From an uncultured Croceitalea sp. (GTDB lineage Bacteria > Bacteroidota > Bacteroidia > Flavobacteriales > Flavobacteriaceae): a stretch of DNA of 64,000 nt. The position numbers were made by a program, and so were the translations under genes. The DNA lies in the NCBI GenBank assembly GCA_947499565.1, contig CANMOV010000001.1, forward strand, positions 186,001 to 250,000, read 5' to 3'. Positions 329-50,974 of this stretch are shown here, piece by piece. The notes below the pieces were generated by a model. That model worked only from the letters and a program-made list of their open reading frames with translations, did not search any database and was not told where the DNA came from. How positions within the stretch are numbered: position 1 is the stretch's first letter; each line of letters begins with the position of its first letter.

Positions 329-763
329 TTATTTAGTCTCCTCCTTTAAATATTCGATGAGAACATCCTGTTGCTCTTTATTTTTAATGCCAATAAAAGC
401 CATAATAGTGCCAGGAACATAGTCTGTTGGTTTTTCTAACCACGCTCTAATATGATCTTCGTTCCAAACAATGTCAGATTTTTTAAGTGCTTCTGAATAA
501 GCAAAACCTTCTAATGAGGCTGCTTTTCTTCCAAAAATGCCATGTAAGTTTGGACCAACTTTATTGGGTTCACCTTTCTTTAGATTATGGCAGGCAGCAC
601 ATTGTATAAATGCTTTAGCTCCTGGAGATAGTTTTGCTATAGGCTTTTTTTGGCTTGTCTCCGTCTTAGGTCTTTTAACCAGAGACTCTTCTTTCTTCTC
701 AGCTTTGCTTCCGCAAGATGCCATAGCGAATGCTAATGCCGAGGTAAAAATTATTTTTTTCAT
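329..763 (-). CDS. Class I c-type cytochrome lipoprotein
   Basis: 144 residues. A lipoprotein signal ends at Cys17 (MASC), followed by a charged linker and a single-haem cytochrome c domain. CAACH (55-59) is the haem-attachment motif and Met121 in PGTIMAF is the likely distal ligand. The overall pattern resembles cytochrome c2 or c-550. It would sit in the periplasm, anchored to a membrane, and pass electrons. It is the last gene of a four-gene minus-strand unit that also encodes a Tat-exported flavin oxidase, so it may accept electrons from periplasmic oxidation (inference). The family call is secure; the partner is not. Confidence 0.88.
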   Translation of the reverse strand: MKKIIFTSALAFAMASCGSKAEKKEESLVKRPKTETSQKKPIAKLSPGAKAFIQCAACHNLKKGEPNKVGPNLHGIFGRKAASLEGFAYSEALKKSDIVWNEDHIRAWLEKPTDYVPGTIMAFIGIKNKEQQDVLIEYLKEETK

Positions 764-794
764 GTACTACTATTTATTCAATCCTTCTTAATTA

Positions 795-1811
795 CTATTT
801 ACTTTCTACTTTTTCACATACGCATGACGCCCATCCCATCTGAAACCCTGCTTTATCTGGATCAGGTTGTGCGAATGCCAAGGCTACTGAAGCACGTTGC
901 CCTTTTTCTATTAGGCGAACCATAAAAAAGTCTGAACCTTCTTTGTAAAATGGATACTGTTTTTCTCGTAACTGGACTTTATATGTTTTGCCATCAACAG
1001 GATTCTCAAAAAAACGAGAACCACCTTGGTCATGAATCAGAATATCATTGTAGCGTTTGTCTTTTTCGCTTGGTAAGTAATACGCTTTTTCGTGAAAAGC
1101 AATATCACAACTGTACCAATCTACTTTTCGCATTTTATGTGGAATGTCATTTGGATGCCCTTTATAAAAGGAATTATCCTTAACCAAGTAGGTCTGGTCA
1201 ACCCGCCAATATTGATTCTCCGAAATAATCATATCATGCACCGAATATCGTTTTAAGTCACCTTCACCAAACTGACACGATTTGTCTTTCATACTGCCAT
1301 GGTACTGTTCACCAATCCTTTTGAAAAAGACGTTACATCCATCCAAGCCAAAGAGGCTTTCTTTTTTTAAACCATCAAAAACTTTTGGTGTAGCATAGGT
1401 CCCCAAATATTTTTTAGAATCCCTTAAAAAATAAAGCTCCATTTCAATAGTTTCTTTGGGAGCGTTACTTTTAAAATTAACTATTCTTTGTCGCCCAACT
1501 TTGGTGGAATCACCTCCTGTGTACTCTTCAATATAAAAAACATATTCACCAATTTCAGGTGCATTTATGCGGGTATGAATTACATGAATGCGCTCATGCT
1601 TTTCCTCTTCTTTTCCAGGCCATCCACCACGACCTTCATACCAGTTTTGAGAATCGTTATCAAATTCGCCTTCAAACCACTTTGAAAGCAGTAAAAGATC
1701 TCTAACATTAGGGTCACTAGATTGCGCTATGCCATTAAAACTTCCAAGAAATATTACTAGAATGGCCAGAAAGCCGGTATTCAAGTTTGAGTTCATTTTA
1801 AATTTTTTCAT
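795..1811 (-). CDS. Secreted CpcT/CpeT-like (bilin-lyase fold) protein with extra C-terminal domain
   Basis: 338 residues. A signal peptide covers about 1-30 (ends GIAQ). Residues about 38-210 match the CpcT/CpeT pattern: FEGEFDNDSQ near the start, an EYVFYIEEY strand, VGRQRIVNF, a GCNVFF segment, and a KDKSCQFG motif equivalent to the family's G-K-x-C. In cyanobacteria CpcT/CpeT proteins are phycobilin lyases or chaperones with a ten-stranded calycin-like barrel. The last ~90 residues (from IHDQGGSRFF) form an additional domain, also seen in the protein at 7648-8706, that I do not recognise. No phycobiliprotein gene is nearby, so ligand binding is more plausible than chromophore attachment. 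Start could also be the internal Met6. Confidence 0.72.
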   Translation of the reverse strand: MKKFKMNSNLNTGFLAILVIFLGSFNGIAQSSDPNVRDLLLLSKWFEGEFDNDSQNWYEGRGGWPGKEEEKHERIHVIHTRINAPEIGEYVFYIEEYTGGDSTKVGRQRIVNFKSNAPKETIEMELYFLRDSKKYLGTYATPKVFDGLKKESLFGLDGCNVFFKRIGEQYHGSMKDKSCQFGEGDLKRYSVHDMIISENQYWRVDQTYLVKDNSFYKGHPNDIPHKMRKVDWYSCDIAFHEKAYYLPSEKDKRYNDILIHDQGGSRFFENPVDGKTYKVQLREKQYPFYKEGSDFFMVRLIEKGQRASVALAFAQPDPDKAGFQMGWASCVCEKVESK

Positions 1812-1840: not shown

Positions 1841-3343
1841 TTATGCTTCCATTATAATCTCTAGGGCAGCTCGTTCGCCAGATTCAAAAGCACCTTCCAT
1901 GCCACGTTCCATAATTGCGGTGTGTTCACCACAGAAATGAATATTGCCATGTCTTGGACGCATGTTGTTTCCAAACTTTGTTACTTGGCCTGGTTGCCAA
2001 TATACCCAATCACCTGCACCATGAATGTCACGTTCACAAGACTGAATTAATAATGGTTTCAGAAGCCCTTTTGTAGAAGGGCGCAATTCTGCAAGCTTTA
2101 TTTGGCAATAAGAGAATACCTGTTCATCTGTCATTAATCGGAATTTCAGAGATTCAGGTCCGTTTATAAAGACTACTAATGCCTCTGGTTGGTCAGAAGA
2201 GCGTTTTGTGCGGACTGCAACTCTTTCTAGCTCCCCATCGGACCACATGTTAGGCGCCAATCCGTCTTTTTCCCAAAATGGCTCCATTACTTGAAAGTGC
2301 GCTTGAATTGATAGTCCATACCCTATTTCGTTAACTGCTTCTGCAGCAATCCCTCGCATTAATGGCTCAAAAGTCACATTTTTTAGTACAGAAATTGGAA
2401 TACTACAAATTACATGGTCGGCATTATATACTGTACCATCTGAGCAGCTTATTTCAGTAATGTTGTTTTTTTCACGGAAAGCAACAACGGTCTTTTCCAA
2501 AAGTACTTCGTTATTAAGACTTTCTGCCATCCTTGATGGTAACTGAGAGTTTCCACCCTTAATCATTTTATAGCTTTTTCCATCTGCGAATTGTAGCTTA
2601 CCATTGAATTCGTTTACATGATATCTGCGCAATTCGTTTAAAGCTGAAGTCCTGTGCATACCACCCGAGTGAATGGTCACATTCATCAAACGAATGGTTT
2701 CTTCATCTAATCCTTTAGAACGCAAATACTGATCATGTGGGATATCATATTTTTGAAATTCTGGCTTTAACCAGGCATCTAAAGGCTGGTCTTTTAATGG
2801 GTTTTCATGATTAGAGATTCTAGATAAAAATTGACTAGGTAACAGATCTCTGAATTCCCCTTTTTGAGGATTCATTGGATGTGAAGGCCAATCTTCTCTA
2901 GTAATAAACTCCCCATTGATGTGATACATCCAAGGACGGTTTTCATTTGTTTGTTCAGGGGAAAATAAGGATAGCCCCATTTTATCCACCATACTAATCA
3001 TCCGAGCATAGTTGGCGCCAATCCATTCTCCGGCTGCTTCTGGTTTTCCAGGGATATTTTCTAAAGTGTATACTCTACCTCCAAGTCGTTTTCTTCCTTC
3101 CAGAACTAAAACATCGTAACCAGCATCTTCCAATAGGATTGCGGCTTGTAGTCCTGAAAGTCCAGCACCAACAACGATAACATCATATTTTTCTTTAGCG
3201 GGACCTTTAGGCTGTTCTGGCAGTAGTACTAGTTCTTCTTTTGGTTTTTCTTCTTTAGTAGCACAGTTTGCAAGTCCTAATGCGCCCACGGCTGCAGCAG
3301 CTCCTGCCACATTTTTTACAAACTTTCTTCTTGTTGTTTTCAT
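1841..3343 (-). CDS. Tat-exported FAD-dependent amine oxidase family protein
   Basis: 500 residues. The N-terminus carries a twin-arginine signal (TRRKFVK, 4-10) and a lipobox-like Cys27. The Rossmann motif VGAGLSG is at 58-64, followed by EGRKRLGGRV (second FAD contact), and the C-terminus has CGEHTAIMERGMEGAFESG, the conserved FAD-binding end of the flavin amine oxidase family (MAO, tryptophan monooxygenase, phytoene desaturase relatives). It should be folded with FAD in the cytoplasm and exported. Substrate unknown. It is one of three such oxidases in the window (others at 5351 and 21563), second in an operon behind the SUMF1-like gene and followed by a CpcT/CpeT-like gene. Confidence 0.85.
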   Translation of the reverse strand: MKTTRRKFVKNVAGAAAAVGALGLANCATKEEKPKEELVLLPEQPKGPAKEKYDVIVVGAGLSGLQAAILLEDAGYDVLVLEGRKRLGGRVYTLENIPGKPEAAGEWIGANYARMISMVDKMGLSLFSPEQTNENRPWMYHINGEFITREDWPSHPMNPQKGEFRDLLPSQFLSRISNHENPLKDQPLDAWLKPEFQKYDIPHDQYLRSKGLDEETIRLMNVTIHSGGMHRTSALNELRRYHVNEFNGKLQFADGKSYKMIKGGNSQLPSRMAESLNNEVLLEKTVVAFREKNNITEISCSDGTVYNADHVICSIPISVLKNVTFEPLMRGIAAEAVNEIGYGLSIQAHFQVMEPFWEKDGLAPNMWSDGELERVAVRTKRSSDQPEALVVFINGPESLKFRLMTDEQVFSYCQIKLAELRPSTKGLLKPLLIQSCERDIHGAGDWVYWQPGQVTKFGNNMRPRHGNIHFCGEHTAIMERGMEGAFESGERAALEIIMEA

Positions 3344-3369: not shown

Positions 3370-4320
3370 TTATTTCTTTTCAATTTCTGCAGCAACGCGA
3401 AAGCCTAACATAAAACTTTTGTAATCTGCACCATCAGCTGAGCGAACTGCTGCCCGGCTCCATGCTATTCCACTAATCCAACTTCCTCCTTTTGGAGTGC
3501 GCCATGCGCAATTATTTTCTGGGTCATTTGTGTCCGCTGTTCCATCTAGAGGAGCATCTGTTAAGTCTCTTTTGTAACAGTCTTCCGTCCATTCCCAAGC
3601 GTTGCCGACCATGTCATATAAACCAAACTTATTAGGTTTAAATTTTCCAACTGGAGCGGTGTATACGTAACCATCTGTGCATGGAAAAGAAGGTCTTGTA
3701 GGATACTTGTCTCCAAACGCTCTATCGCCAATGTTAGCGTACTCACATGCCTCTTCTGGGTTCGTTCCCCAATACCAAGGAGAACTGCTTCCTGCTCTTG
3801 AAGCATATTCGAATTCAACGGCAGAGGGAATACGGTATTTTCTCCCTGTTTTTTTAGACAACCAATTTGCATATGCATTGGCATCACTCCAGCTTACACA
3901 TACTACGGGTGCATCTTCCCGTTGTGCATAACCAGGGTTTTTCCAATTATGATTGGCAATATATCCATATTGTTTACCATCGTAGTAGTTGCAACCCACT
4001 AGGGGCTCACCATCACGAATGGCAGCCTTAGATTTGTATTTAGTCTCTTCCATAAATACTCTGTACTGGCCCAAGGTGACTTCTTTGGCTGCTAACGCAA
4101 ATGGTTTGCTAATAGTTGCCAACACTCTCTTTCTATCGCTTTGTTTTCTTCCTATTTCTTCTTTGTAAGAACCAATATAGACTTTGCCAGTTGGAATAGT
4201 TACCATTTCTGGACATGATTTACAATCTTTAAAAGATGGTATACTATCATTTTGCGCTGCAACTTTAAAAAAGAAAATTTGTAACAGGATTAAGAATAGT
4301 ATGTGGAAGCTCGTTTTCAT
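3370..4320 (-). CDS. Exported SUMF1/formylglycine-generating-enzyme-like protein lacking the catalytic cysteines
   Basis: 316 residues with a signal peptide (cleavage near VAAQ, residue 23). The FGE-sulfatase (SUMF1/EgtB) fold is recognisable from VTLGQYRVFMEET, APVVCVSWSDANAYANWL, YRIPSAVEFEYASRAG, GLYDMVGNAWEWTED and the terminal KGGSW...RAAVRSADG...GFRV. In true formylglycine-generating enzymes two Cys lie between GGS and the RVAAR-like motif. Here that segment reads WISGIAWS and has none. Conversion of a sulfatase Cys is therefore unlikely; a structural or ligand-binding role, or another oxidation chemistry, is possible. First gene of the leftward unit that starts at the operator at 4390-4420. 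Confidence 0.78.
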   Translation of the reverse strand: MKTSFHILFLILLQIFFFKVAAQNDSIPSFKDCKSCPEMVTIPTGKVYIGSYKEEIGRKQSDRKRVLATISKPFALAAKEVTLGQYRVFMEETKYKSKAAIRDGEPLVGCNYYDGKQYGYIANHNWKNPGYAQREDAPVVCVSWSDANAYANWLSKKTGRKYRIPSAVEFEYASRAGSSSPWYWGTNPEEACEYANIGDRAFGDKYPTRPSFPCTDGYVYTAPVGKFKPNKFGLYDMVGNAWEWTEDCYKRDLTDAPLDGTADTNDPENNCAWRTPKGGSWISGIAWSRAAVRSADGADYKSFMLGFRVAAEIEKK

Positions 4321-7647: not shown

Positions 7648-8706
7648 TTATGAACCAGGTCTTAAACCATATTGTAATTTTCTATTTTCCGGAGTATCTA
7701 AATCGCATTGTACGCGTATCCATCCGGGGTTAAAACCAATACGGTCTGCACCTGGATTACCCCAAGAATAAATAAGTGTCTTTCCTTTTTGCGAACCTTC
7801 CTGAATAAAAATAACAAAGGTCTCACGTTGCATGCCCAAGGACCAAGTATTGCGCATACCTAAAACCATGTGACGCCCATCATCATAGTCAAACTCAAAC
7901 TTTCCACCTTGGTCGTGGATAGGAATATAATATTTGGTAATGGTAGGTCTTCCATTCTCTTTGTTTGGAAAATCTATCATGCACACAAAACATCTAGCCT
8001 TCTCTAACTTGGACCATGTGGATTGTTCTTGATCAGGGAGTCTATTACCGGTAACCTTGTGGTATTTAATTTCATTAAACCAATACTCATTTTCACCAAC
8101 CATGATTTGATAATCTATGGAAAGCTGAGAATTAGAAGATGAGTTTATACAATTAGTGTTTTCAGTCTTTCCTCTAAAAGACATGCCATCTCTTTCCATT
8201 AGCATATCACAACCCTTTTTTAGTAGCGCAGAGTTGGGTTTTATATCCTTTAAAAATGACAGATTATCCATTACGGACAGCTTTGGAATAGGTTTTTTAA
8301 AGTGGTGCACTTTTACTCGGATTGCATTTGCTTCTTCATCTGCAAACAACTCATAAATACCTTGCTTTGTGATAATGTCAGGATTGTCATTTTCATATTC
8401 TTCAATATAAATTACATAGTTACCAAAAGCTGGTAAATCTAATCTCTTAGCAAAACTATGGCTCCGAACATGTTTTCCTTTTTTAGGAGTATCCTTTTTT
8501 AAATAACGATCAAAGTCCATTTGTTCCACGTTGTCATACTCCCCAGGCCAAATGGTCATTAAGTATTCTAGTTCTCTTTCTTGGTAGGAGTAGATACGTT
8601 CTGGTGGTATTTCAGGAGAAGTATCACCTTGAGCAATTAATGTATGAATCCAAGCCATTAAAATTAACAGCACTAATAAACCTGTTTTGACCTTTATAGT
8701 TTTCAT
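7648..8706 (-). CDS. Secreted CpcT/CpeT-like protein with extra C-terminal domain
   Basis: 352 residues. A signal peptide ends near LIAQ26. The CpcT/CpeT domain covers about 45-235: MTIWPGEYDNVEQM, FGNYVIYIEEYEND, TKQGIYELF, GCDMLMERDGMSFRGKTENTNC. The remaining ~110 residues include ARCFVCMIDF, then YYIPIHDQGGKFEFDYDDGRHMVLGMR and end GFNPGWIRVQCDL. This tail aligns by eye with the tail of the protein at 795-1811 (IHDQGG, GF.MGWASCVC), so the two share a two-domain architecture. Last gene of the minus-strand unit that begins at operator copy 2. Confidence 0.73.
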   Translation of the reverse strand: MKTIKVKTGLLVLLILMAWIHTLIAQGDTSPEIPPERIYSYQERELEYLMTIWPGEYDNVEQMDFDRYLKKDTPKKGKHVRSHSFAKRLDLPAFGNYVIYIEEYENDNPDIITKQGIYELFADEEANAIRVKVHHFKKPIPKLSVMDNLSFLKDIKPNSALLKKGCDMLMERDGMSFRGKTENTNCINSSSNSQLSIDYQIMVGENEYWFNEIKYHKVTGNRLPDQEQSTWSKLEKARCFVCMIDFPNKENGRPTITKYYIPIHDQGGKFEFDYDDGRHMVLGMRNTWSLGMQRETFVIFIQEGSQKGKTLIYSWGNPGADRIGFNPGWIRVQCDLDTPENRKLQYGLRPGS

Positions 8707-8721: not shown

Positions 8722-9243
8722 TTAATTGGATTCAAGTTCGTATAGTACGATAAGATGACCATCAAAATCTATGAATGCCTGTTCTATAAAATAGAATTCA
8801 TGGTTTTTAGCCCTTCTAGGTTCTGTAGTTTCAAGACCCAATGCAGCTATTTTGCTCATAGTGTTTTTTAAATCGCCCACCTTAATAACAGCTGCCGTCA
8901 TTAATGGAATACCTGGTTTTGGAAGCGCAATGCCTTTTACTTCTGTCAATGCCAGAGTACGCTCTTGAGATGGAGAGCTTAAAGTGATAAAAGAAATCTC
9001 AGCTTCTTTTGGTATTTTAAAAACGGGATACGAGTACGAATCTGGTGAAGATTTTTTTCTGCTGAAAATTGAAAAACCCAAAATATCATGATAAATTTCT
9101 AAGGATTTAGTAGCATCACTTATTAGAAGATTGGTTCTTTTAAAAAGTAGCTCTTTATCTGCTGCAATGATTAAAGAATCACTTTGTGCCTTTACACTAG
9201 CAATAAAAAGGAGAAGTATGGTTATAGTAATATTATTTTTCAT
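8722..9243 (-). CDS. Exported VOC-superfamily (glyoxalase/dioxygenase-fold) protein
   Basis: 173 residues. A signal peptide (1-20, ends VKAQ) precedes a single VOC module: FKRTNLLISDATKSLEIYHDILGFS, SYPVFKIPKEAEISFI, ALTEVKGIALPKPG, AAVIKVGDLKNTMSKIAALG, and the end FDGHLIVLYELES. The first metal-ligand position usually held by His is Arg (KRTNLL), and the terminal Glu strand reads HLIVLY, so the canonical H/E metal site looks altered. Close paralogue of the cytoplasmic VOC at 41104-41538. Export of a VOC protein is unusual. Function unknown; binding or isomerisation of an exported intermediate is possible. Confidence 0.75.
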   Translation of the reverse strand: MKNNITITILLLFIASVKAQSDSLIIAADKELLFKRTNLLISDATKSLEIYHDILGFSIFSRKKSSPDSYSYPVFKIPKEAEISFITLSSPSQERTLALTEVKGIALPKPGIPLMTAAVIKVGDLKNTMSKIAALGLETTEPRRAKNHEFYFIEQAFIDFDGHLIVLYELESN

Positions 9244-9255
9244 CAGATTTTAGAA

Positions 9256-14370: not shown

Positions 14371-14404
14371 TCCGTCTAAAATTTCAAACTTAAAGCAAAT
14401 ACAA

Positions 14405-34718: not shown

Positions 34719-34719
34719 T

Positions 34720-35187: not shown

Positions 35188-35190
35188 AAC

Positions 35191-36770: not shown

Positions 36771-36772
36771 TT

Positions 36773-38472: not shown

Positions 38473-38486
38473 AGTTTTGTTTTAGA

Positions 38487-39512: not shown

Positions 39513-39520
39513 CTAAAACC

Positions 39521-40114: not shown

Positions 40115-40121
40115 AATGATT

Positions 40122-41093: not shown

Positions 41094-41103
41094 GAGGATA
41101 CTA

Positions 41104-41538: not shown

Positions 41539-41556
41539 ACTATTTTTATTTATGTT

Positions 41557-42711
41557 TTACCAGGTTGCTTTTTTGGGTGGACTGTATCTACTAATACTGT
41601 CCATTAGTGCTTTCATTTCTTGTCCGGTTTTTGGTAATTTTTCTTTGCTCATTTCTAAATGATTAATTGGTACTTCTTGCAAGTACTGCTCAAAAACAGG
41701 CTTGGTCATTTCCAAAGCATAATTGGGAATGGTTCTATCTTTTCTAAAGGAAGCAATAGGAATTTTGGCTTCTACAATACCATCTTCTTCTTTACTTGGA
41801 TGTTTGGCCAATATTTTACCATTAGGACTAACGATAACGGATTCCCCGGCATTATAACCTGTACTTACAGGTAAGGTAAAGTTGGCCATTGCTGAATAGA
41901 AATCATTACTCCAAGCGGTAAAAACTACATCCTCTTCAGCAAAAAGAGTTGCTGTTCGTAACATAATCTCTGTACCGCGCATGGCAAAAGCTGCAAATAT
42001 GAAAGGGTCAAATTGTACCGTACTCACAGCAATGTTTCCAAACTCGGTTTTTAGAACTGGAAACTCTTCTTCAACCCCATATTTAGCTCTATAGGAATCT
42101 CGTACAGCTTCTATAGTGGTGGTGGTGATTTCACGATCTTTATACAGTCGTTTGATATTCCTAGATTTCCAAAAGGTCTTTGCAATTTCTCCGTCTCTTC
42201 CAATAACCGTATTGATACTCAAAATATGGTCTGGCCATTCCTTGTCACGCACATAGCTGCCAAAAATTACATAGCAATCACATTCCTCTGCAATTTTTCC
42301 GATGCGTTCGGTTTGTGGACCTGGTACTTCAATGGTAAAAGGTAGTTTTTCCTGTCGTGTTCCAGAAGAATATCCCGTTAACGGAAATTCATGGAACAAT
42401 ATAAAGTCTGGTTTGTCACCTTCAGTCGTCGCCTGCTTTGCCATTTGTTCCATATACTTCATATTTTCTTCCAATCCTTCTTCAATAGAAGGAAAGCTAG
42501 ATAAGGATTTTACCCTGGTTTGCATTACTTTAATAACGATGCTATCCTTTTCCAATGGTACTTTGTCATAAGTGCCATCTGCCTTTACCAATTCAGTTTC
42601 TGAGTTTTTTGGTGTATCATCAATAGCGGTAGATTTTTCCATATTTTCCTTGCAAGCACTTGTCCACAGTAATGCAAGTAAAAATGAAATAGTGATTAGC
42701 CTTGTTTTCAT
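41557..42711 (-). CDS. Exported nitrilase-superfamily protein with Cys-to-Ser active site
   Basis: 384 residues. Lipobox TSAC20, then a carbon-nitrogen hydrolase domain. The catalytic Glu is in FHEFPLTGYS (Glu108) and the Lys in TFWKSRN (Lys182). In aliphatic amidases the nucleophile lies in an ICDDGNYPE-like motif; the matching segment here is AVSTVQFDPF, followed by a good match (FAMRGTEIMLR against CAMKGAELIVR), which places Ser230 at the Cys. The codon is AGT, so a single base change separates it from TGT. Either a non-hydrolytic relative or a Ser-based variant. Second in the minus-strand unit after the VOC at 42721. Confidence 0.82.
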   Translation of the reverse strand: MKTRLITISFLLALLWTSACKENMEKSTAIDDTPKNSETELVKADGTYDKVPLEKDSIVIKVMQTRVKSLSSFPSIEEGLEENMKYMEQMAKQATTEGDKPDFILFHEFPLTGYSSGTRQEKLPFTIEVPGPQTERIGKIAEECDCYVIFGSYVRDKEWPDHILSINTVIGRDGEIAKTFWKSRNIKRLYKDREITTTTIEAVRDSYRAKYGVEEEFPVLKTEFGNIAVSTVQFDPFIFAAFAMRGTEIMLRTATLFAEEDVVFTAWSNDFYSAMANFTLPVSTGYNAGESVIVSPNGKILAKHPSKEEDGIVEAKIPIASFRKDRTIPNYALEMTKPVFEQYLQEVPINHLEMSKEKLPKTGQEMKALMDSISRYSPPKKATW

Positions 42712-42720
42712 AAGTATTAT

Positions 42721-43722
42721 TTAATCTATTAGTTGTACAAACTCAATCCAAACACCATCTGGCGATAAAACCGAAAATATTTTTAAATCACCATATGGAG
42801 GAACGTTTGCAATTTGAATTTCTGAGTTCAATTTTAATCCCCTTTCTTTTAGCTTAGTTGCATATGCTTCAGCATCCTTTACTGGAAAACGGTACATTAA
42901 GATTCCTAGGTTAGGTGGTTTCGCAAATTCCGCACAGTCCATACCTTTGAGTTCATTGGTATGTATATATTCAATAGAGCCAAAGTTGTCCTTATCCGGC
43001 CTTACAATGTCTATAGGCACCGTAATATCTTGATTTATGTTTGGAGGAATACCAATTACATTATGACCAGTTTCTCTATCCAAACCAGGAGTTTGAAAAA
43101 ACATTTGGAATCCTAATTTGTTTATGTAAAAATCATAAGATTCTTTCATATCCCTAACCGTAACCGAGGAATTAAAAATGCGACTTGTTTTCTTCATATG
43201 ATCAAAATCCTTCAGTGGTGGCGCGTATCTTTGCATAAAAGCAATTACAATTCCATCGGGACCTTTCATAAGCACTTCGGAAACATCATAAATACCAAAA
43301 ACATAGCGTTTGGGTTCAGAGATTCCATTCCAACCTTCATTCTGCAGTTCTCGGTACCAGTTATCCATGTCTGGAGTTCGCATATTCACGTCAAAAATTC
43401 CCCCAGTATCCCAAATATGGGTAGCAGAACGTATTTGGCGTTGCTTTACATTTTTAAATTGCACTAGGCGTGCAAAGCCTTCATGGTCACCCTCATTTTG
43501 CAGAAGTGCTTCTTCAATCTGCACGGAGTCATCCAAAGCCCATAGTTTTTTTAGGGTATGAACACTTTTATTACGACCAACTAGGACCCATCCACATACT
43601 CTAGTAAAGAAATCAATATACCTTTCAATATTAGAAACACTAAAAAGTACTTCTTGGAAACCTTTTATTTCTGGGTCATTTGCTGAAAATTTAAGATTGT
43701 GTTTCATAGTATTTATTTCCAA
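42721..43722 (-). CDS. Two-module VOC-superfamily protein
   Basis: 333 residues from 43722; Met6 (43707) is an alternative start. Modules: FQEVLFSVSNIERYIDFFTRVCGWVLVG ... IVIAFMQRYAPPL, and FNSSVTVRDMKESYDFYINKLGFQMFF ... VLSPDGVWIEFVQLID. Shared blocks with the protein at 32845 (the W-D-T-G-G-I-x-D-x-N segment, A-F-x-x-R-x-x-P-P-L, S-P-D-G-V-W) show that the two are paralogues. The terminal Glu is kept; the first-strand His is not evident. First gene of the seven-gene leftward unit from operator copy 7, so it should be among the most strongly made proteins there. Confidence 0.78.
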   Translation of the reverse strand: MEINTMKHNLKFSANDPEIKGFQEVLFSVSNIERYIDFFTRVCGWVLVGRNKSVHTLKKLWALDDSVQIEEALLQNEGDHEGFARLVQFKNVKQRQIRSATHIWDTGGIFDVNMRTPDMDNWYRELQNEGWNGISEPKRYVFGIYDVSEVLMKGPDGIVIAFMQRYAPPLKDFDHMKKTSRIFNSSVTVRDMKESYDFYINKLGFQMFFQTPGLDRETGHNVIGIPPNINQDITVPIDIVRPDKDNFGSIEYIHTNELKGMDCAEFAKPPNLGILMYRFPVKDAEAYATKLKERGLKLNSEIQIANVPPYGDLKIFSVLSPDGVWIEFVQLID

Positions 43723-43787: not shown

Positions 43788-43818
43788 GTTAATATATTTA
43801 ATGATTAACATAGTTAAT
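43788..43818. promoter_or_regulatory. Shared compound operator, copy 7
   Basis: GTTAAT-ATA-TTTAAT (43788-43802, one base off consensus) and ATTAAC-ATA-GTTAAT (43804-43818) are 1 bp apart, between the divergent VOC (-) and biotin carrier (+) genes. TACCTTTA at 43830-43837 starts 12 bp after the right box, the same distance as at copy 2. Confidence 0.8.
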
Positions 43819-43858: not shown

Positions 43859-44350
43859 ATGGCTGATGTAATGACCAATTATAAGATTAGTGTTGATGAG
43901 GAAGAGTTTACACTTTCTAACCAAGATATGGCTGCTTTGGACATGCTAGAATTGGATGAAAATAAATTTCATTTACTACAAGACAATCTTGCTTATGATG
44001 TAGCGGTTTTACATTCTAATTTCATGGATAAAACCCTTTCTATTTCTGTTAACGGAAACACATATGAAGTAAAGATAGCGGATGCGTATGACCAAATGGT
44101 TGAGAAAATGGGCCTCCTGATAAACACTTCTCAAAAAGTGAATGAAATTAAAGCACCCATGCCAGGATTAATTTTAGATATTATGGTGGAGGTAGGACAA
44201 GAGATTTTTGAGGGAACACCTTTGCTTGTTTTATCCGCCATGAAAATGGAAAATATTATTTTATCGCAAGGAGATGGAATTGTAAAATCCATTGAAGTAA
44301 AGAAGGATGACGCAGTTGAGAAAGGACAGTTAATTATTGAAATGGAATAA
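43859..44350 (+). CDS. Biotin carboxyl carrier protein of an acyl-CoA carboxylase
   Basis: 163 residues. The C-terminal biotinyl domain has APMPGLILDIMVEVGQEIFEGTPLLVLSAMKMENII; the Lys of AMKM (near 128) is biotinylated. The N-terminal half (YKISVDEEEFTLSNQDMAALDML, ISVNGNTYEVKI) is the spacer typical of Bacteroidota carrier subunits. It carries the carboxyl group between the biotin carboxylase and the carboxyltransferase encoded just downstream. First gene of the rightward unit from operator copy 7. Confidence 0.9.
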   Translation: MADVMTNYKISVDEEEFTLSNQDMAALDMLELDENKFHLLQDNLAYDVAVLHSNFMDKTLSISVNGNTYEVKIADAYDQMVEKMGLLINTSQKVNEIKAPMPGLILDIMVEVGQEIFEGTPLLVLSAMKMENIILSQGDGIVKSIEVKKDDAVEKGQLIIEME

Positions 44351-44388
44351 ACTAATTATTAATACGATACTGAAAATATTCAGCATAA

Positions 44389-45861
44389 ATGAAGAAAATA
44401 TTAATAGCCAACAGAGGAGAGATAGCATTACGTATAATGAAGACGGCCCAAAAAATGGGTATTAAAACAGTTGCGGTGTATTCTGAAGTAGATAGGCATT
44501 CACCTCATGTAAAATTTGCAGACGAAGCTGTTTTATTGGGAAAAGCGCCTTCCTCAGAGTCGTATTTAGTCATGGAAAGGGTAATAGAAGCTGCAAAGAA
44601 TACTGGCGCGGAGGGAATACACCCGGGATATGGTTTCTTAAGTGAGAACGCCACTTTTGCCAAAATGGTAGCAGATAGTGGTATTACTTTTATTGGTCCG
44701 AAACCCCATACTATAAAAGTTATGGGTGATAAATTGGCAGCAAAAGAAGCGGTACGAGATTACGATATTCCTATGGTTCCTGGAATTGAGGAAGCGATTA
44801 CGGATGTGGAGCTAGCAAAAAAAATTGCTTCAGAAGTTGGCTTTCCTATTCTAATAAAAGCCTCAGCAGGGGGTGGAGGTAAGGGTATGCGAATTGTAAA
44901 TACTTTAGAAGAACTTCCCGAACAAATGGAACGGGCCATAAGTGAAGCAGTTGCTGCTTTTGGAGATGGATCTGTTTTTATTGAAAAATATGTGGGTTCT
45001 CCTCGCCATATAGAAATACAAGTCTTAGCAGATTCACATGGTAATATAGTACACCTTTTTGAACGTGAATGCAGTGTGCAACGTAGGCATCAAAAAGTAG
45101 TAGAAGAAGCTCCATCTGCGGTACTAACTCCAAAAATTAGAGAAGCGATGGGCGAAGCCGCTGTAAAAGTTGCGAAAGCTTGCGATTATGTAGGTGCCGG
45201 AACTGTCGAATTCTTGTTAGATGAAAATAAGAATTTCTATTTTTTAGAGATGAATACACGTTTGCAAGTAGAACATCCTGTTACAGAATTGATTTCTGGA
45301 GTTGATTTAGTTGAACAGCAAATAAAAGTTGCTAGAGGAGAAAAGCTTCAATTTAAACAAGAAGATTTAAAAATTACCGGCCATGCATTGGAAATTAGGG
45401 TGTATGCAGAAGATTCCTTAGATAATTTTATGCCAAGTATAGGAACATTATCAACATATAAAAAGCCTAGTGGTGAAGGGATTCGACTGGATGATGGGTT
45501 TGAAGAAGGAATGGAAGTACCTATCCATTATGACCCCATGTTATCCAAGTTAATTACCTATGGAAAGAATAGAGAAGAAGCAATTCAGTTAATGATTAAA
45601 GCGATAGGGGATTACAAGATAGAGGGAATTTCAACAACGCTTCCTTTTGGCAAATTTGTTTGTGAACATGAAGCGTTTACGTCTGGAAATTTTGACACAC
45701 ATTTTGTTAAAAACTATTATTCTCCTGAGCAACTAAAAGCCCAATATAAAAAGGAGAAAGAAATTGCTGCATTAGTAGGTTTAAAATTATATTTAAGCGA
45801 TAAGGAAAAATTGAAGACACCTAGTTCTTCGGAATCTGAATGGCAAAAAAATAGAGCTTAG
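44389..45861 (+). CDS. Biotin carboxylase subunit of acyl-CoA carboxylase
   Basis: 490 residues. ATP-grasp biotin carboxylase: [62 protein letters not shown] (ATP loop), [20 protein letters not shown] and [28 protein letters not shown] (catalytic signature). It carboxylates the carrier protein's biotin with bicarbonate and ATP. Length is slightly above the 450 of AccC and normal for propionyl-CoA carboxylase alpha chains that lack a fused biotin domain, consistent with the separate carrier upstream. Confidence 0.92.
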
Positions 45862-45866
45862 TTAGA

Positions 45867-47408
45867 ATGAAAGATAATAAGCAAATATTAGAGGATAAAT
45901 TGATGCAGTCTCGTTTAGGAGGCGGTCAGGTTCGTATTGATAAACAACATGCTAAGGGAAAACTTACTGCTAGAGAACGCGTACATTTTCTATTGGATGA
46001 AGGTTCGTTCGAGGAGATGGGAGCTTTAGTGACGCACCGTACTAAAGATTTTGGTATGGAAAAGCAGGTTTTCTATGGAGATGGTGTTGTAACGGGCTAT
46101 GGAACTATAAATGGAAGACAAGTTTGCGTTTTTGCGCAAGATTTCACTGTTTTTGGTGGCGCCCTGTCTGAAACCCATGCAGAGAAAATCTGTAAGGTTA
46201 TGGATATGGCGATGAAAATAGGTGTTCCAGTAATCGGGCTTAATGATAGTGGAGGAGCTAGAATCCAAGAAGGGGTTCGCTCTTTGGGAGGTTATGCGGA
46301 TATTTTCCATAGAAATGTAATGGCTTCTGGAGTTATTCCGCAACTATCTGCAATTATGGGACCATGTGCCGGCGGAGCTGTTTATTCGCCAGCGATGACA
46401 GATTTTACCTTAATGGTAGAAAACTCTAGTTATATGTTTGTTACGGGACCCAATGTGGTAAAAACAGTTACTAATGAGGAAGTAACATCAGAAGAATTGG
46501 GTGGTGCTTCTACGCATGCTACAAAATCTGGAGTAACTCATATGACTGCTGCTAATGATATGGAGTGTATTGCTCAGATAAAGCAAATGGTAAGTTATAT
46601 GCCTCAGAACTGCGAAGATTTACCTGTAACTCTCCCTTATAGTGTTGGGGAGGAAACTAGAGCTATATTAGAAAGTATTGTACCTGAAAATGCGAGTCAG
46701 CCTTATGATATGCGTCATGTAATAAACGGAATTGTAGACGAATCTTCATTCTTTGAAATTCATAAGGATTATGCCGAGAATATTGTAGTCGGTTTTGCCC
46801 GTTTGGCGGGTAAGAGTATTGGTATTGTTGCCAATCAACCAATTAGTTTAGCAGGTGTTTTAGATGTAGATAGTTCAAAAAAGGCAGCTCGATTTACACG
46901 TTTTTGTGATTGTTTTAATATTCCTTTATTAGTATTGGTAGATGTACCAGGCTTCTTACCAGGTACAGACCAAGAATGGAATGGAATTATAACTAATGGT
47001 GCTAAGCTTTTATATGCCTTAAGTGAGGCAACAGTTCCTAAAGTTACTGTGATAACCAGAAAAGCCTATGGTGGTGCATATGATGTAATGAACTCGAAGC
47101 ATATTGGTGCAGATATGAATTATGCTTGGCCGGGGGCAGAAATTGCAGTTATGGGGGCAAAAGGAGCAAGTGAAATAATCTTTAGAAAAGAGATTACTTC
47201 TGCTAAAGACCCTGCTGCTAAATTAGCCGAGAAAGAAGCAGAATATGCCGATAAATTTGCCAATCCATACAGCGCAGCGGAAAGAGGTTTTATAGATGAG
47301 GTAATTCTTCCAAAAAATACACGTAGAAAATTGATAAAAGCATATGCGATGCTTCAAAATAAAGTAGCTACATTACCAAAGAAAAAACACGGAAATATTC
47401 CGTTGTAA
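45867..47408 (+). CDS. pccB: Propionyl-CoA carboxylase carboxyltransferase (beta) subunit
   Basis: 513 residues. Carboxyltransferase motifs: [105 protein letters not shown] and [31 protein letters not shown]. The last segment is typical of propionyl-CoA rather than acetyl-CoA carboxylases. It forms methylmalonyl-CoA for the mutase encoded directly downstream, which strengthens the propionyl-CoA assignment. Confidence 0.92.
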
Positions 47409-47442
47409 TTCGCTGAAATACAGTTGCTACTAAGTTTGAAAA

Positions 47443-48819
47443 ATGTTAGGAATGAGTGACAAAAGCTTATTTGATGATTTTAATCCAGTTTCTGCGAAAG
47501 AATGGAAACAGAAAATTCAGTTCGATTTAAAAGGTGCTGACTATAACGAAACACTAGTTTGGGAATCACCAGAAGGGATTAAGGTAAAACCCTTTTATCA
47601 TGCTGATGATAATGTAAATAGCTATAAGGTTCCTGTTACATCCGGATGGAGTGTAGGGCAATCCATTTATGTACGTAATGCAATAGTAGCAAATGGCAAA
47701 GCTAAAACGGTTTTAGAAAAGGGAGCGGAAAGTATTCAGTTTATAATTCCTTCAGATGATATTATAATATCAGAATTACTAGAAGGTATTCCACTCGAAG
47801 AAACTCACATTTATTTTGATTTTCATTTTTTATCATTGGACTATATAAAATCCATACAAGATTTTATTGGTGATTTTAAAGCTGGTATTCACCTTAATAT
47901 AGACCCAATAGGTCATCTCGCTAGGACAGGGAATTGGTTTTCTAATCTAAAAACAGATTTAGACAGCGTTAATCAAGTATTAGATTTAGAATTTAAGAAC
48001 ACTTTAAGCATTGATAGTTCGCTGTATCAAAATGCAGGGGCTAATATGGTGCAGCAATTAGCCTATTCTCTTGCTCATGCAAATGAGTATTTAAATCAGT
48101 CTGAAAACGTAATAGAAAAAGGTCCTAATATCACGTTTAAAGTAGCTATGGGGACTAACTATTTTTTCGAAATTGCTAAGCTAAGAGCTTTAAGAATTCT
48201 ATGGGCTGCTTTAGCTAATGCATATGCTATATCAGAAGAATGCCATATCATAGCAATGCCTTCCAAACGGAATAAAACGCTATATGATTACAATACCAAT
48301 ATGCTTCGTACGACTACGGAATGCATGTCAGCAGTATTGGGAGGAACCAATATGGTTTTAAACATGCCTTACGATGCTATTTATCATAAGGATAATGATT
48401 TTGGAGAGCGTATCGCTTTAAATCAGCTATTACTGCTTAAAAATGAAAGTCATTTTGACAAAGTAAATAATGCTGCAGATGGGGCTTATTATATTGAACA
48501 GGTGACCAATCAGTTAGCTGAAAAAGCATTAGAACTCTTTAAACAATTAGAAAAGGGCGGAGGATTTTTAAAGCAGTTAAAAGACACTATTATCCAAAAG
48601 AAAATAAAGGACAGTGCAACTAAAGAACAGAAGGCTTTTAATTCTGGCGAGGAAGTACTTTTGGGAACCAACAAGTATGTAAATGAGTTGGATAAAATGA
48701 AAGATACTATGGAACTGTATCCTTTTGTCAAGAAAAATTCCCGAAAGACTTTAATAGAACCTATTATAGAAAGGCGACTAGCGGAAGAAGTAGAACAAAA
48801 AAGACTGAATGATGAGTAG
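47443..48819 (+). CDS. mutA: Methylmalonyl-CoA mutase small subunit
   Basis: 458 residues; the start may be Met4 at 47452. [33 protein letters not shown] is the familiar small-subunit N-terminus, followed by a TIM-barrel half with [27 protein letters not shown] and [24 protein letters not shown]. It lacks the C-terminal cobalamin domain, as expected for the non-catalytic chain of the heterodimer. It overlaps the large-subunit gene by 11 bp. The partner enzyme methylmalonyl-CoA epimerase is not evident in the window. Confidence 0.92.
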
Positions 48820-50974
48820 GAAGAACTTAGACCATATCAGTTTAAATAGCACCTCAGCAAGTACAAACGATGAAGGTAAATTGGTTCAAAAAACGTTTGA
48901 AACGGCAGAGAAGATTGGTGTAAAGTCTTCTTTTTCGGCATCAGATAATATAGATTTTGAGCATTTAAATTTCGCCGCAGGAATACCGCCATACTTACGC
49001 GGACCATACTCTACTATGTATGTTAGAAGGCCGTGGACAATACGGCAATACGCTGGATTTTCTACGGCTGAAGAGAGTAATGCATTTTATAGGAGAAATT
49101 TAAAAGGCGGGCAAAAAGGACTTTCAGTTGCGTTTGATTTGCCTACTCACAGGGGTTACGATAGTGATCATGAACGTGTGATTGGGGATGTTGGTAAAGC
49201 AGGTGTGGCTATCGATTCTGTTGAGGATATGAAAATTTTGTTTGATGGTATTCCTCTGGATAAAATGTCGGTTTCTATGACTATGAATGGAGCTGTACTA
49301 CCAATTATGGCTTTTTATATTGTTGCAGCAGAAGAACAAGGTGTGGACAAGAAACTATTAGCGGGAACTATTCAGAACGATATTTTAAAGGAATTTATGG
49401 TTCGGAATACCTATATCTATCCGCCCAAACCTTCTATGCAATTGGTAGCAGATATTTTTGAGTATACGAGTAAGTTTATGCCCAAATTTAATAGTATAAG
49501 TATTTCCGGGTATCACATGCATGAGGCTGGGGCAACTGCAGATATAGAGTTGGCATATACCTTAGCGGATGGTTTAGAATATATTAAGACTGGACTCAAA
49601 GCAGGTCTGGAGATAGATAATTTTGCACCGCGACTTTCTTTCTTTTGGGGAATAGGGATGAACCATTTTATGGAAATTGCTAAAATGCGAGCAGCTAGAA
49701 TGCTTTGGGCCAAACTAGTAAAACAGTTTAATCCGAAAAGTGATAAATCTCTTGCATTACGAACCCATTGTCAAACTAGTGGATGGAGTTTAACAGAGCA
49801 AGACCCTTTTAATAATGTAGCGCGAACAGTTGTTGAAGCTACAGCTGCCATTTTTGGCGGCACTCAAAGTTTACATACCAATGCTTTGGATGAGGCCATT
49901 GCCTTACCAACAGATTTTTCTGCGCGAATTGCTAGAGAAACGCAGATTTTACTCCAAGAGGAAACAAAAATCACCAAGACTGTAGATCCTTGGGCTGGTA
50001 GTTATTATGTGGAGTACCTAACAGACCAATTGGTGAAAAAGGCATGGGCATTAATAGAAGAAGTTGAAGAATTGGGAGGAATGACAAAGGCTATTGAAGC
50101 AGGTATTCCAAAAATGCGAATTGAACAAGCTGCAGCAAGAAAGCAAGCTAAGATTGATAGCGGACGTGATGTTATTGTTGGTGTAAATAAGTTTCAGTTA
50201 GAAGAGGAAGATGACCTGCAGATTCTTGAAGTAGATAATCAAGAAGTTCGCAGGCAGCAATTGGAACGTTTGGAATCCATCAGAAAGAGTAGAGATGAGA
50301 AAGCTGTTAAAGATGCTTTGGCAAAACTAACAGAAGCAGCTAAGCTTAAAATGCAATCTGATGAAGATAATTTGCCCCAGGATAAAAATTTACTAGCTTT
50401 AGCTGTAGATGCCGCAAGATTAAGAGCCACTTTAGGAGAGATAAGTTTGGCTATGGAGAACGTTTTTGGACGACATAAAGCGGTTATAAAATCATTTTCA
50501 GGAGTGTATTCTAAAGAGATAAAACAAGATGATAGCTTTATAAAAGCCCGTGAAATGGCTAATAAGTTTGCAGAGCAAGATGGCCGTAGACCGCGAATAA
50601 TGATTGCAAAAATGGGACAAGATGGTCATGACCGTGGAGCAAAAGTTGTTGCAACTGGTTATGCTGATATTGGTTTTGATGTTGATATAGGACCATTGTT
50701 TCAAACGCCAGAGGAAGCTGCAAAACAAGCCGTTGAGAATGATGTTCATATTCTTGGGGTGTCTTCATTAGCTGCTGGCCATAAAACATTAGTACCTAAA
50801 GTGATTGAAGAACTAAAGAAGTTTGGTAGAGAAGACATCATGGTGATTGTAGGAGGGGTTATTCCTAAGCAAGATTATGATTTTCTCTATGAAGCTGGAG
50901 CTGTAGCTGTTTTTGGACCAGGTACAAAGATTGGTGAAGCAGCAATACAACTACTAGATATTTTAATTGATTAG
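48809..50974 (+). CDS. mutB: Methylmalonyl-CoA mutase large subunit (cobalamin-dependent)
   Basis: 721 residues. The catalytic barrel has [77 protein letters not shown] and [19 protein letters not shown]. The C-terminal B12 domain has [24 protein letters not shown], with the cobalt-ligating His in D-x-H-x-x-G near residue 607, and ends [14 protein letters not shown]. It converts (R)-methylmalonyl-CoA to succinyl-CoA, feeding the citric acid cycle. Last gene of the regulon; the tRNA follows 60 bp later without a visible terminator in between. Confidence 0.95.

What the first reader, a model, noticed from the sequence alone, without database searches (positions are those of the whole stretch)
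329..50974. Candidate undescribed catabolic system for a bilin-like (pyrrole/lactam) substrate
One regulon combines four CpcT/CpeT-fold (bilin-lyase family) proteins, a DUF3598-like calycin, a HapK-like protein, three Tat-exported flavin oxidases, an amidohydrolase, ATP-dependent HyuA/HyuB lactam/imide hydrolase, ene-reductases, a LeuC/LeuD-like hydratase, an HpcH/HpaI aldolase, an AceE/E2 complex and propionyl-CoA carboxylase plus mutase. A linear tetrapyrrole has terminal lactams and methyl/ethyl-substituted pyrroles that would give alkylated maleimides. Hydrolysis, hydration and aldol cleavage would yield pyruvate or 2-oxobutyrate plus propionate or butyrate, matching the downstream enzymes. 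This is inference from gene content; each family has other known substrates, and no outer-membrane receptor is present.
Basis: inference. Interest (0 to 1): 0.9.

Follow-up and report, generated by a model that had tools for sequence, protein, structure and literature searches.

The report
Candidate bilin-pigment breakdown regulon
A seaweed-associated type of bacterium carries about 77 kb of genes under one shared control sequence that look built to import and fully break down a pyrrole-ring pigment, most likely the bilin pigments of red algae and cyanobacteria, for which my literature searches showed no described bacterial pathway.

Summary
The gene content is mostly as described and really is one regulon. 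A four-box operator, TTAA-N5-TTAA-N3-TTAA-N5-TTAA, occurs 6 times in the window (0 in 100 shuffles). Across the whole 1.54-Mb contig all 8 exact sites and all 10 profile hits fall inside the cluster. The system is larger than the window (C1:160-237 kb). Just upstream lie the missing TonB receptor, a fourth CpeT protein, a MarR regulator and a second imide branch (PuuE-like hydrolases, isochorismatase-family amidase, second LeuC/LeuD, CoA-transferase, HMGL-like lyase). The core is conserved across Bacteroidota and Kapabacteria. A sister cluster sits on sphingomonad plasmids. CpeT and the core co-occur. Of 13 core-bearing MAGs named like those of a Weihai seaweed survey, 11 came from red algae, 2 from sediment, none from green or brown algae or seawater. 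This fits degradation of a linear tetrapyrrole to two kinds of alkylated imide. The substrate is still inferred. No bridge-cleaving enzyme was identified, 11 of 50 core genomes lack a detectable CpeT, and the one CpeT tried found no match on plasmids.

The parts
329..763 (-). lipoprotein cytochrome c, possible electron acceptor of exported flavin oxidases
   Evidence: Pfam PF00034 E 4.7e-07; lipobox pattern
795..1811 (-). CpeT1, exported CpcT/CpeT-fold protein with C-terminal extension
   Evidence: PF06206 E 3.8e-21; profile of 34 CpeTs hits CpcT 4o4o E 8.8e-29
1841..3343 (-). flavin amine-oxidase family protein AO1, twin-Arg pattern plus lipobox
   Evidence: PF01593 E 8.4e-52
3370..4320 (-). 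exported FGE/sulfatase-modifying-factor-like protein
   Evidence: PF03781
4391..4419 (.). operator 1 (FGE / DUF1838a divergent promoter)
   Evidence: exact TTAA-N5-TTAA-N3-TTAA-N5-TTAA
4461..5354 (+). DUF1838 lipoprotein a
   Evidence: PF08894
5351..6853 (+). flavin amine-oxidase family protein AO2
   Evidence: PF01593
6866..7600 (+). CpeT2, lipobox pattern
   Evidence: PF06206 E 4.3e-18
7648..8706 (-). CpeT3, exported, two-domain
   Evidence: PF06206 E 4.4e-15
8722..10065 (-). exported glyoxalase-fold protein and alpha/beta hydrolase (two genes)
   Evidence: PF00903, PF00561
10091..11575 (-). amidohydrolase
   Evidence: PF01979
11588..11616 (.). operator 2 (amidohydrolase / AceE divergent promoter)
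   Evidence: exact site
11692..16030 (+). AceE-type 2-oxoacid dehydrogenase E1 and E2 (two genes)
   Evidence: TIGR00759 above cut-off, PF00198
16009..17443 (+). two genes without Pfam match, homologs in sphingomonad plasmid clusters (33% and 46% in pJE1)
17484..17512 (.). operator 3 (DUF3598 promoter)
   Evidence: exact site
17546..18058 (+). DUF3598 calycin, core marker gene
   Evidence: PF12204 E 3e-05; AlphaFold pLDDT 94; Foldseek hits BFA1, DUF3598 2o62, S-type bilin lyase CpeS 4tq2, Ycf58 3bdr and nitrobindins; hit in 51 of 53 LeuC loci
18114..20041 (-). flavodoxin-like oxidoreductase and MFS transporter (two genes)
   Evidence: PF02525, PF07690
20206..20234 (.). operator 4 (MFS / LeuC divergent promoter)
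   Evidence: exact site
20292..21560 (+). LeuC-like, proposed dialkylmaleate hydratase large subunit
   Evidence: NF001614/TIGR01343 above subfamily cut-offs
21563..22915 (+). flavin amine-oxidase family protein AO3
   Evidence: PF01593
22928..23452 (+). LeuD/DmdB-like small subunit with unusual NFAGGGKSIEH motif
   Evidence: TIGR02087 88 bits, below its 109-bit cut-off; motif in 57 of 57 homologs collected
23457..24218 (+). HpcH/HpaI aldolase, proposed dialkylmalate lyase
   Evidence: PF03328; PDB 4b5s E 4e-36
24243..24554 (+). HapK (RedY-like)
   Evidence: PF11639 29.1 bits vs cut-off 25; only PDB hit 2jdj, E 0.0015
24557..25390 (+). SDR oxidoreductase
   Evidence: PF13561
25421..27541 (+). 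HyuA, ATP-dependent lactam/imide hydrolase subunit
   Evidence: PF01968/PF05378; caprolactamase CapA 554 bits, below its 1000-bit cut-off; PDB N-methylhydantoinase 7hk5
27543..28967 (+). flavocytochrome-c-like FAD oxidoreductase
   Evidence: PF00890; TIGR01813 225 bits, below cut-off
29100..30719 (+). HyuB
   Evidence: PF02538 E 3.3e-144
30731..32700 (+). SAM methyltransferase, 120-aa unknown protein, SnoaL-like protein (three genes)
   Evidence: conserved neighbours
32780..32808 (.). operator 5
   Evidence: exact site
32845..38008 (+). glyoxalase-fold protein, DUF1838b, peroxiredoxin, glyoxalase-fold protein, unknown (weak CpeT-like N-terminus), MFS transporter
38059..43722 (-). DoxX, PTGR-type MDR, glyoxalase-fold x3, rhodanese, CN-hydrolase
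43789..43817 (.). operator 6 (glyoxalase / BCCP divergent promoter)
   Evidence: exact site
43859..50974 (+). BCCP, biotin carboxylase, carboxyltransferase, methylmalonyl-CoA mutase small and large subunits
   Evidence: the genome's other PF01642 matches lie in one 1175-aa frame

Best explanation
A MarR-type, operator-defined catabolic regulon (about 77 kb, C1:160.3-237 kb) that imports a linear tetrapyrrole (bilin; in this host most likely phycobilins or their cysteinyl conjugates) through a dedicated TonB receptor. Exported CpeT-fold proteins bind or deconjugate it, and exported flavin oxidases, cytochrome c and other redox proteins cut it into mono- or dipyrrolic lactams/imides. Two parallel cytoplasmic branches then finish the job. 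Branch A is HyuAB (ATP-dependent ring opening), LeuC/LeuD hydratase with the altered small subunit, then HpcH/HpaI-type lyase. Branch B is PuuE-like hydrolases u09/u10, isochorismatase-family amidase u11 (or CN-hydrolase u02), a second LeuC/LeuD, CoA-transferase u13 and HMGL-like lyase u17. The two branches would match the two kinds of pyrrole in a bilin (methyl/ethyl-vinyl and methyl/propionate). Products (2-oxoacids plus propionyl- or butyryl-type acids) go to AceE/E2 and to carboxylase plus methylmalonyl-CoA mutase. Shown computationally: gene families, operator, synteny, co-occurrence. Inferred: substrate, order of steps, CpeT role, branch specificity, regulator-operator pairing.
For: Operator: 6 exact sites in the window against 0.00 expected. 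On the whole contig 8 of 8 exact sites and 10 of 10 profile hits lie in the cluster. 102 exact sites in loci L001-L092, 1 inside an ORF of 150 aa or more. MarR gene u01.
Core synteny in 53 loci. 19 of the 30 distant loci have a hit to the TonB receptor u25 within 10 kb (a large family, so some may be other receptors).
CpeT in 6 of 6 DUF3598-core genomes against 28 of 395 in the phylum sample, own genome counted; 39 of 50 LeuC-core genomes. In the relatives sample of 59 the core is in exactly the 5 genomes with two or more CpeTs.
u11 orthologs (E <= 1e-40) in 3 of 395 phylum genomes, all core carriers, and in 30 of 50 LeuC-core genomes.
CpcT is the best PDB match of the CpeT profile; the DUF3598 model resembles CpeS among other calycins.
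No PF01126 heme oxygenase in the genome, control rings in 3 of 14, which fits an already linear substrate.
11 of 13 Weihai-named MAGs with the core from red algae, 0 from Ulva, Saccharina or seawater; P 0.0037 against all genomes of the survey, 0.007 among algal ones.
Plasmid pJE1 carries both branches plus an isocitrate-lyase/PEP-mutase-family enzyme adjacent to LeuCD.
Against: No substrate, expression or biochemical datum. 11 of 50 core genomes show no PF06206 hit and 20 of 50 no u11 hit. CpeT1, the only CpeT tried, had no match in 72,556 plasmid records although sister clusters are there, so CpeT is not essential to the inner chemistry, and several of those hosts are soil isolates. Maribacter algarum 4-528 (name matches L042, which holds the core) was isolated from Gelidium but recruits more reads on the green alga Ulva (PMC12313589). 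The red-algal bias is not significant in Saprospiraceae alone (6 of 7, P 0.13). HpcH's nearest solved relatives are 4-hydroxy-2-oxoacid aldolases, not dialkylmalate lyases. Branch-A LeuD lacks the usual SSRE motif. The pJE1 LeuC/LeuD pair scores above the isopropylmalate-dehydratase equivalog cut-offs, and its neighbouring lyase is nearer to phosphonomutase and methylisocitrate lyases than to dimethylmalate lyase. No methine-bridge-cleaving enzyme identified. Mutases are common in relatives. Operator absent from 17 of 17 loci outside Flavobacteriaceae and Saprospiraceae.
Confidence: 0.5

Rival explanations
1. Same machinery, but the natural substrate is another tetrapyrrole: chlorophyll catabolites (pheophorbide-derived or phyllobilin-type) or heme-derived biliverdin/bilirubin. 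These give the same alkyl imides.
For: Sister clusters on plasmids of soil, rhizosphere and lake sphingomonads; Maribacter algarum 4-528 recruits most reads on Ulva, a green alga.
Against: Red-algal bias of core-bearing MAGs; CpeT family, closest in the PDB to a phycocyanobilin lyase; no PF01126 heme oxygenase in this genome (other heme-oxygenase families not tested). The Staygreen search was uninformative because its control was silent.
Confidence: 0.22
2. A catabolic regulon for a non-tetrapyrrole lactam, imide or pyrrole metabolite (for example an algal alkaloid or a prodiginine). CpeT, DUF3598 and DUF1838 would act as generic hydrophobic-ligand carriers.
For: The calycin fold is ligand-promiscuous (one search also lists nitrobindins and lipocalins); HapK is named after a prodiginine-cluster protein (name from Pfam; role recalled); core genomes without CpeT.
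Against: Two parallel imide-to-hydratase-to-lyase branches suggest a substrate giving two imide types; CpeT/core linkage; occurrence across many Bacteroidota and in sphingomonads suggests a common compound.
Confidence: 0.2
3. A secondary-metabolite biosynthesis or modification cluster (HapK, methyltransferase, SnoaL, flavin oxidases) rather than catabolism.
For: HapK, SnoaL and methyltransferase families often occur in biosynthetic clusters (recalled).
Against: No ketosynthase, adenylation or condensation domain was reported in the proteins scanned; only generic cross-matches of SDRs to the KR domain and of a hydrolase to a thioesterase model. TonB receptor, two hydratase/lyase branches and carboxylase/mutase under the same operator point to breakdown.
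Confidence: 0.05
4. A chance neighbourhood of unrelated housekeeping operons.
For: PF01642 matches are in 54 of 59 genomes of the relatives sample.
Against: Operator confined to the cluster, conserved synteny across families and co-occurrence statistics.
Confidence: 0.03

Closest known systems
Anaerobic nicotinate catabolism of Eubacterium barkeri (dimethylmaleate hydratase DmdAB plus 2,3-dimethylmalate lyase; recalled)
   Same: Uses a LeuC/LeuD-type hydratase on a dialkylmaleate followed by a lyase giving pyruvate and propionate; NCBIfam names one small-subunit family LeuD/DmdB, which u15 passes and the window LeuD matches below cut-off; sphingomonad sister clusters have an isocitrate-lyase/PEP-mutase-family enzyme next to LeuCD.
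   Different: Here there are two LeuC/LeuD pairs, with ATP-dependent HyuAB and PuuE-like plus isochorismatase-family hydrolases; the lyases are HpcH/HpaI and HMGL-like; there is a TonB receptor.
CpcT/CpeT (T-type) phycobiliprotein lyases
   Same: PF06206 above cut-off; profile E 8.8e-29 to CpcT 4o4o/4o4s.
   Different: Signal-peptide or lipobox patterns, C-terminal extensions, several copies per genome, a Flavobacteriaceae host; lyase activity untested.
Hydantoinase/oxoprolinase family (N-methylhydantoinase, 5-oxoprolinase, caprolactamase CapAB)
   Same: HyuA and HyuB domains complete; HyuA's nearest PDB entry is an N-methylhydantoinase; best NCBIfam caprolactamase.
   Different: Scores (554 and 204 bits) are far below the caprolactamase cut-offs of 1000, so a different substrate is likely.
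Cyclic-imide and maleamate pathways (PuuE-type hydrolases, NicF-type maleamate amidase; recalled)
   Same: u09 matches PuuE allantoinase structures and u10 the PuuE model below its cut-off; u11 matches N-carbamoylsarcosine amidases and 3ot4 (identity of 3ot4 as NicF recalled).
   Different: Paired u09/u10, coupled to LeuCD, CaiB-type CoA-transferase and HMGL-like lyase.

Membership tests
T-type bilin lyase (CpcT/CpeT) | PF06206 domain above curated cut-off | tested here: met
   Three window proteins plus one upstream
T-type bilin lyase (CpcT/CpeT) | cytosolic/plastid chromophore attachment in a phototroph with phycobiliproteins | tested here: not met
   Export patterns by heuristic; host is a Flavobacteriaceae genome. 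Phycobiliprotein genes were not searched. So not filed as a lyase
T-type bilin lyase (CpcT/CpeT) | bilin binding or transfer | not testable with these tools
   needs purified protein
DmdAB-type dialkylmaleate hydratase | two-subunit aconitase-superfamily enzyme with 4Fe-4S cysteines | tested here: met
   LeuC/LeuD profiles; cysteine motifs GTCTNG and PSCASC read by eye
DmdAB-type dialkylmaleate hydratase | canonical small-subunit SSRE motif (recalled) | tested here: not met
   Branch A has NFAGGGKSIEH in 57 of 57; branch B has NFGCGSSREQA in 10 of 10
ATP-dependent HyuAB lactam/imide hydrolase | HyuA with N, middle and C domains plus nearby HyuB | tested here: met
Single regulon | shared operator confined to the cluster | tested here: met
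   contig C1 only, 1.54 of 3.88 Mb
Single regulon | operator bound by the MarR protein u01 and relieved by substrate | not testable with these tools
   u01 is a MarR protein; binding untested
Phycobilin catabolic system | bias to hosts or sites rich in phycobilins | tested here: inconclusive
   11 of 13 MAGs from red algae, but 4-528 recruits most reads on Ulva, and soil sphingomonad relatives exist

The most novel reading that the evidence does not exclude
A complete pathway for using linear tetrapyrroles (phycobilins) as carbon and nitrogen source: outer-membrane import, exported bilin-lyase-fold proteins turned into bilin catchers or deconjugating enzymes, oxidative cutting, and two parallel imide branches, one per pyrrole type, feeding central metabolism. 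The inner branches also travel on sphingomonad plasmids, so bacterial breakdown of tetrapyrrole pigments would be a widespread, mobile trait.
Probability: 0.42. Interest if true: 0.92.

Novelty: new variant of a known kind. Interest (0 to 1): 0.8.

Why it matters
Phycobilins and other tetrapyrroles are abundant nitrogen-rich pigments, yet I know of no bacterial pathway that takes a bilin to central metabolites, and the rows shown by searches of the held open-access library listed none. A defined regulon, operator and gene list in deposited isolates (for example Maribacter algarum 4-528) makes the question directly testable. It would also give functions to PF06206 proteins in non-phototrophs and to DUF3598 and DUF1838, and would reveal a mobile imide-degradation module in sphingomonads.

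Tried and rejected
Literature for an existing description: searches gave listings only (top rows of larger result sets); none of the rows described such a system. Searches (CRUMPLED LEAF; HapK/RedY) gave listings that I did not read further. Two papers were opened, PMC12313589 and PMC10233909, passages only.

Considered and rejected: carboxylase/mutase as proof of propionyl-CoA chemistry, because 54 of 59 genomes of the relatives sample have a PF01642 match. The 190-aa protein at 36198-36770 as a full CpeT member: profile E 0.0028, 35-column hhalign match, probability 82, and no CpcT hit in the PDB. A first motif scan by k-mers did not separate clearly from shuffles; the operator was seen by reading those intergenic sequences, and the structured pattern was then tested, so the pattern was chosen on the window and its independent tests are the rest of the contig and the other genomes. 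The Staygreen search said nothing because its control was silent. A DUF1838 structure could not be predicted. The two actinobacterial stretches (L206, L207) share only 1 and 2 further genes.

Rows dropped: L041, L050 and L091 (near-duplicates of L040, L049 and L089) were left out of the 50-genome counts because of a limit of 50. In 'distant' means 30 of 53 loci. Loci are cut at 10-kb flanks, so absences there are not true absences. The LeuC scan used patterns from one sequence, so it finds close relatives only. The survey background of 2584 genomes mixes MAGs and isolate genomes, whereas the 13 counted are MAGs; a MAG-only split by alga was not seen. That these 13 belong to that survey is inferred from their names.


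Full report
Setting. The window is G000:C1:186001-250000 of a 3.88-Mb genome. Its genus-mates G002, G006 and G007 have contigs whose lengths match records titled Croceitalea (L044, L068, L056), so the host is a marine Flavobacteriaceae. The fourth is at C1:179520-180248.

The system extends beyond the window. Reading C1:160-186 kb adds a MarR regulator (u01), a CN-hydrolase (u02), a CpeT-like lipoprotein (u06; CpeT-profile E 4e-22), an SBF-family transporter (u08), and two polysaccharide-deacetylase-fold proteins (u09 matches PuuE allantoinase structures; u10 the PuuE model below its cut-off). It also adds an isochorismatase-family amidase (u11; PDB matches include N-carbamoylsarcosine amidases and 3ot4), a CaiB-type CoA-transferase (u13), a second LeuC/LeuD pair (u16/u15), an HMGL-like lyase (u17), an aldehyde dehydrogenase (u18), CpeT4, an MFS transporter (u23), a TonB-dependent receptor (u25, C1:182323-184971) and a third DUF1838 protein (u26). 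There are two parallel sets of imide/amide hydrolase, aconitase-type hydratase and lyase.

One regulon. Promoter regions share a palindromic operator with four TTAA boxes. The pattern TTAA-N5-TTAA-N3-TTAA-N5-TTAA gives 6 exact matches in the window at 4391, 11588, 17484, 20206, 32780 and 43789; 100 dinucleotide shuffles gave none. I then fetched all the rest of contig C1. All 8 exact sites, and all 10 hits above 16 bits of a matrix trained on 83 sites from other genomes, fall between C1:164,173 and 229,822. Over loci L001-L092 there are 102 exact sites, some counted twice in overlapping loci, and only 1 lies inside an ORF of 150 aa or more. A site lies within 400 bp upstream of DUF3598 or LeuC in 23 of 23 Flavobacteriaceae loci and 10 of 13 Saprospiraceae/Lewinella loci, but 0 of 17 other loci. 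In the window genome the operator precedes the TonB receptor, FGE-oxidase-CpeT and DUF1838-oxidase-CpeT, AceE, DUF3598, LeuC, glyoxalase and carboxylase/mutase units. The link to u01 is inference.

Conservation. A scan of about 85,000 species genomes with patterns from this one LeuC returned 53 loci, whose titles name Flavobacteriaceae, Saprospiraceae and other Bacteroidota, and Kapabacteria. Of these 53, LeuC and LeuD are in 53, DUF3598 and HpcH in 51, HapK in 48, the SDR in 47, HyuA in 46, HyuB in 38 and the methyltransferase in 37, within 10-kb flanks. In the 30 distant loci 368 of 481 ORFs of 150 aa or more have a homolog in the window or its upstream region (paralogous families inflate this). 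In G002 the order is kept over the whole region with a few genes missing (37-40, 42 and u24 of my numbering); in G033 it is rearranged but still clustered. Same-genus genomes G003 and G004 (99% complete) lack both core and CpeT, so the trait is patchy.

Co-occurrence. In a phylum sample of 395 genomes, own genome included, CpeT is in 28, the DUF3598 core in 6, and all 6 have CpeT (hypergeometric 7e-8; at genus level 3 of 3 against 17 of 170, 8e-4). These values ignore relatedness. In 50 of the 53 LeuC-core genomes CpeT is in 39 and u11 in 30; in the phylum sample u11 is in 3 of 395, all core carriers, so 3 of the 6 core carriers there lack it. In 59 relatives, own genome included, the core occurs in exactly the five genomes that hold two or more CpeTs; three others hold a single CpeT.

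Ligand-binding proteins. A profile of 34 CpeT sequences from cluster and other loci hits CpcT (4o4o/4o4s) at E 8.8e-29, plastid CRL (6lix) at 2e-8 and 5hi8 (listed as 'Antenna protein'; recalled as phage CpeT) at 5.5e-4. The DUF3598 model (pLDDT 94) is a calycin barrel; Foldseek lists BFA1, DUF3598 of Nostoc, nitrobindins, the S-type bilin lyase CpeS (4tq2, E 1.4e-4) and Ycf58. This is compatible with tetrapyrrole binding but not specific to it. HapK's only PDB hit is the RedY-like 2jdj (E 0.0015).

Sister clusters on plasmids. HapK matches 8 plasmid records, all sphingomonad; on 7 of them u11 lies about 8-22 kb away, on the eighth (RL4) far away. Annotated pJE1 (Sphingomonas) and pTomTYG65b (Sphingobium) show u09, u10, u11, u13, u17, two LeuC/LeuD pairs, HapK, SDR, methyltransferase, MFS, TonB and GntR within about 40 kb; HyuA and HyuB are seen in pJE1 and by homology in pTHN. 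Both annotated plasmids also have an isocitrate-lyase/PEP-mutase-family enzyme next to LeuCD. The pJE1 protein's PDB matches include 2,3-dimethylmalate lyase 3fa3 (E 2e-41), though a phosphonomutase (8e-62) and methylisocitrate lyases score higher, and the pJE1 LeuC/LeuD pair beside it passes isopropylmalate-dehydratase equivalog cut-offs. So this is suggestive of hydratase-then-lyase chemistry, not proof. DUF3598 matches 4 plasmid records: on RL4 it lies next to MFS, a TonB-receptor fragment match, u11, u10 and u09; on pSA1 near an amine oxidase, DUF1838 and LeuC/LeuD-like genes. CpeT1 found no match in the plasmid collection.

Ecology. PMC10233909 (passages read) gives the MAG letter code: R and H are the two red algae, L Ulva, B Saccharina, S seawater, N sediment (its Table 1 swaps R and H, both red). 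Thirteen loci come from MAGs of that naming: 9 R, 2 H, 2 N (titles; count). With 1148 of 2584 survey genomes from red algae, 11 or more of 13 has P 0.0037; among algal genomes, 11 of 11 has P 0.007; for the seven Saprospiraceae alone 6 of 7 red is P 0.13 and none from Ulva or Saccharina P 0.03. Species dereplication, shared ancestry and a background that mixes MAGs with isolates weaken these values. Against it, Maribacter algarum 4-528, isolated from Gelidium, recruits more reads on Ulva (PMC12313589, passages).

Mechanism. I propose import through TonB; CpeT and exported flavin oxidases bind, deconjugate and cut the bilin; ring opening by HyuAB (branch A) or u09/u10 with u11 (branch B); hydration by two LeuC/LeuD pairs; cleavage by HpcH or u13/u17; 2-oxoacids to AceE/E2 and propionyl-CoA to carboxylase/mutase. 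Branch A's LeuD has NFAGGGKSIEH instead of the SSRE motif in 57 of 57 homologs, branch B keeps NFGCGSSREQA in 10 of 10, which suggests two different substrates. No PF01126 heme oxygenase is found in the genome while the control rings in 3 of 14, consistent with a substrate that is already linear; other heme-oxygenase families were not searched. The rhodanese and FGE-like proteins could deal with cysteine conjugates; this is speculation.

Verdict. Operator-defined catabolic regulon: strongly supported. Two-branch imide/dialkylmaleate chemistry: supported by family and synteny, not assayed. Linear tetrapyrrole as substrate: best reading, about one in two. Phycobilin specifically: somewhat less.

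Noticed in passing
L208, L209, L211, L212 (sphingomonad plasmids): A catabolic cluster on plasmids (pTomTYG65b, pTHN and pSA1 typed conjugative, pJE1 mobilizable) sharing HapK, SDR, methyltransferase, u09-u11, the CoA-transferase and at least one LeuCD pair (two in pJE1 and pTomTYG65b) with the window system; substrate unknown.
   Followed up: partly
window 53208-63999: Beyond the cluster, GC rises and two very large secreted proteins with YD/Rhs-like repeats by eye (1246 aa and at least 1582 aa, running off the window) follow; family not searched.
   Followed up: no
L093-L109, L115-L119 and L010 (other Bacteroidota): Of 28 phylum-sample genomes with CpeT, 22 lack the core; 21 of these have a single copy and 19 match the family at E 2e-30 or better, closer to canonical CpeT than the window proteins. 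Their role is unexplained.
   Followed up: no
window 22928-23452: Branch-A LeuD small subunit replaces the usual SSRE substrate motif by GGKSIEH, invariant in 57 of 57 homologs collected: an apparently undescribed LeuD subfamily.
   Followed up: partly
window 28968-29099: Upstream of HyuB a partial operator-like sequence (TTAGTTAACTTAGTTAACTAATT) that does not match the four-box pattern.
   Followed up: no
window 51035-51109: tRNA-Arg(TCT) directly after the mutase genes, near the right border of the cluster, a possible integration point.
   Followed up: no
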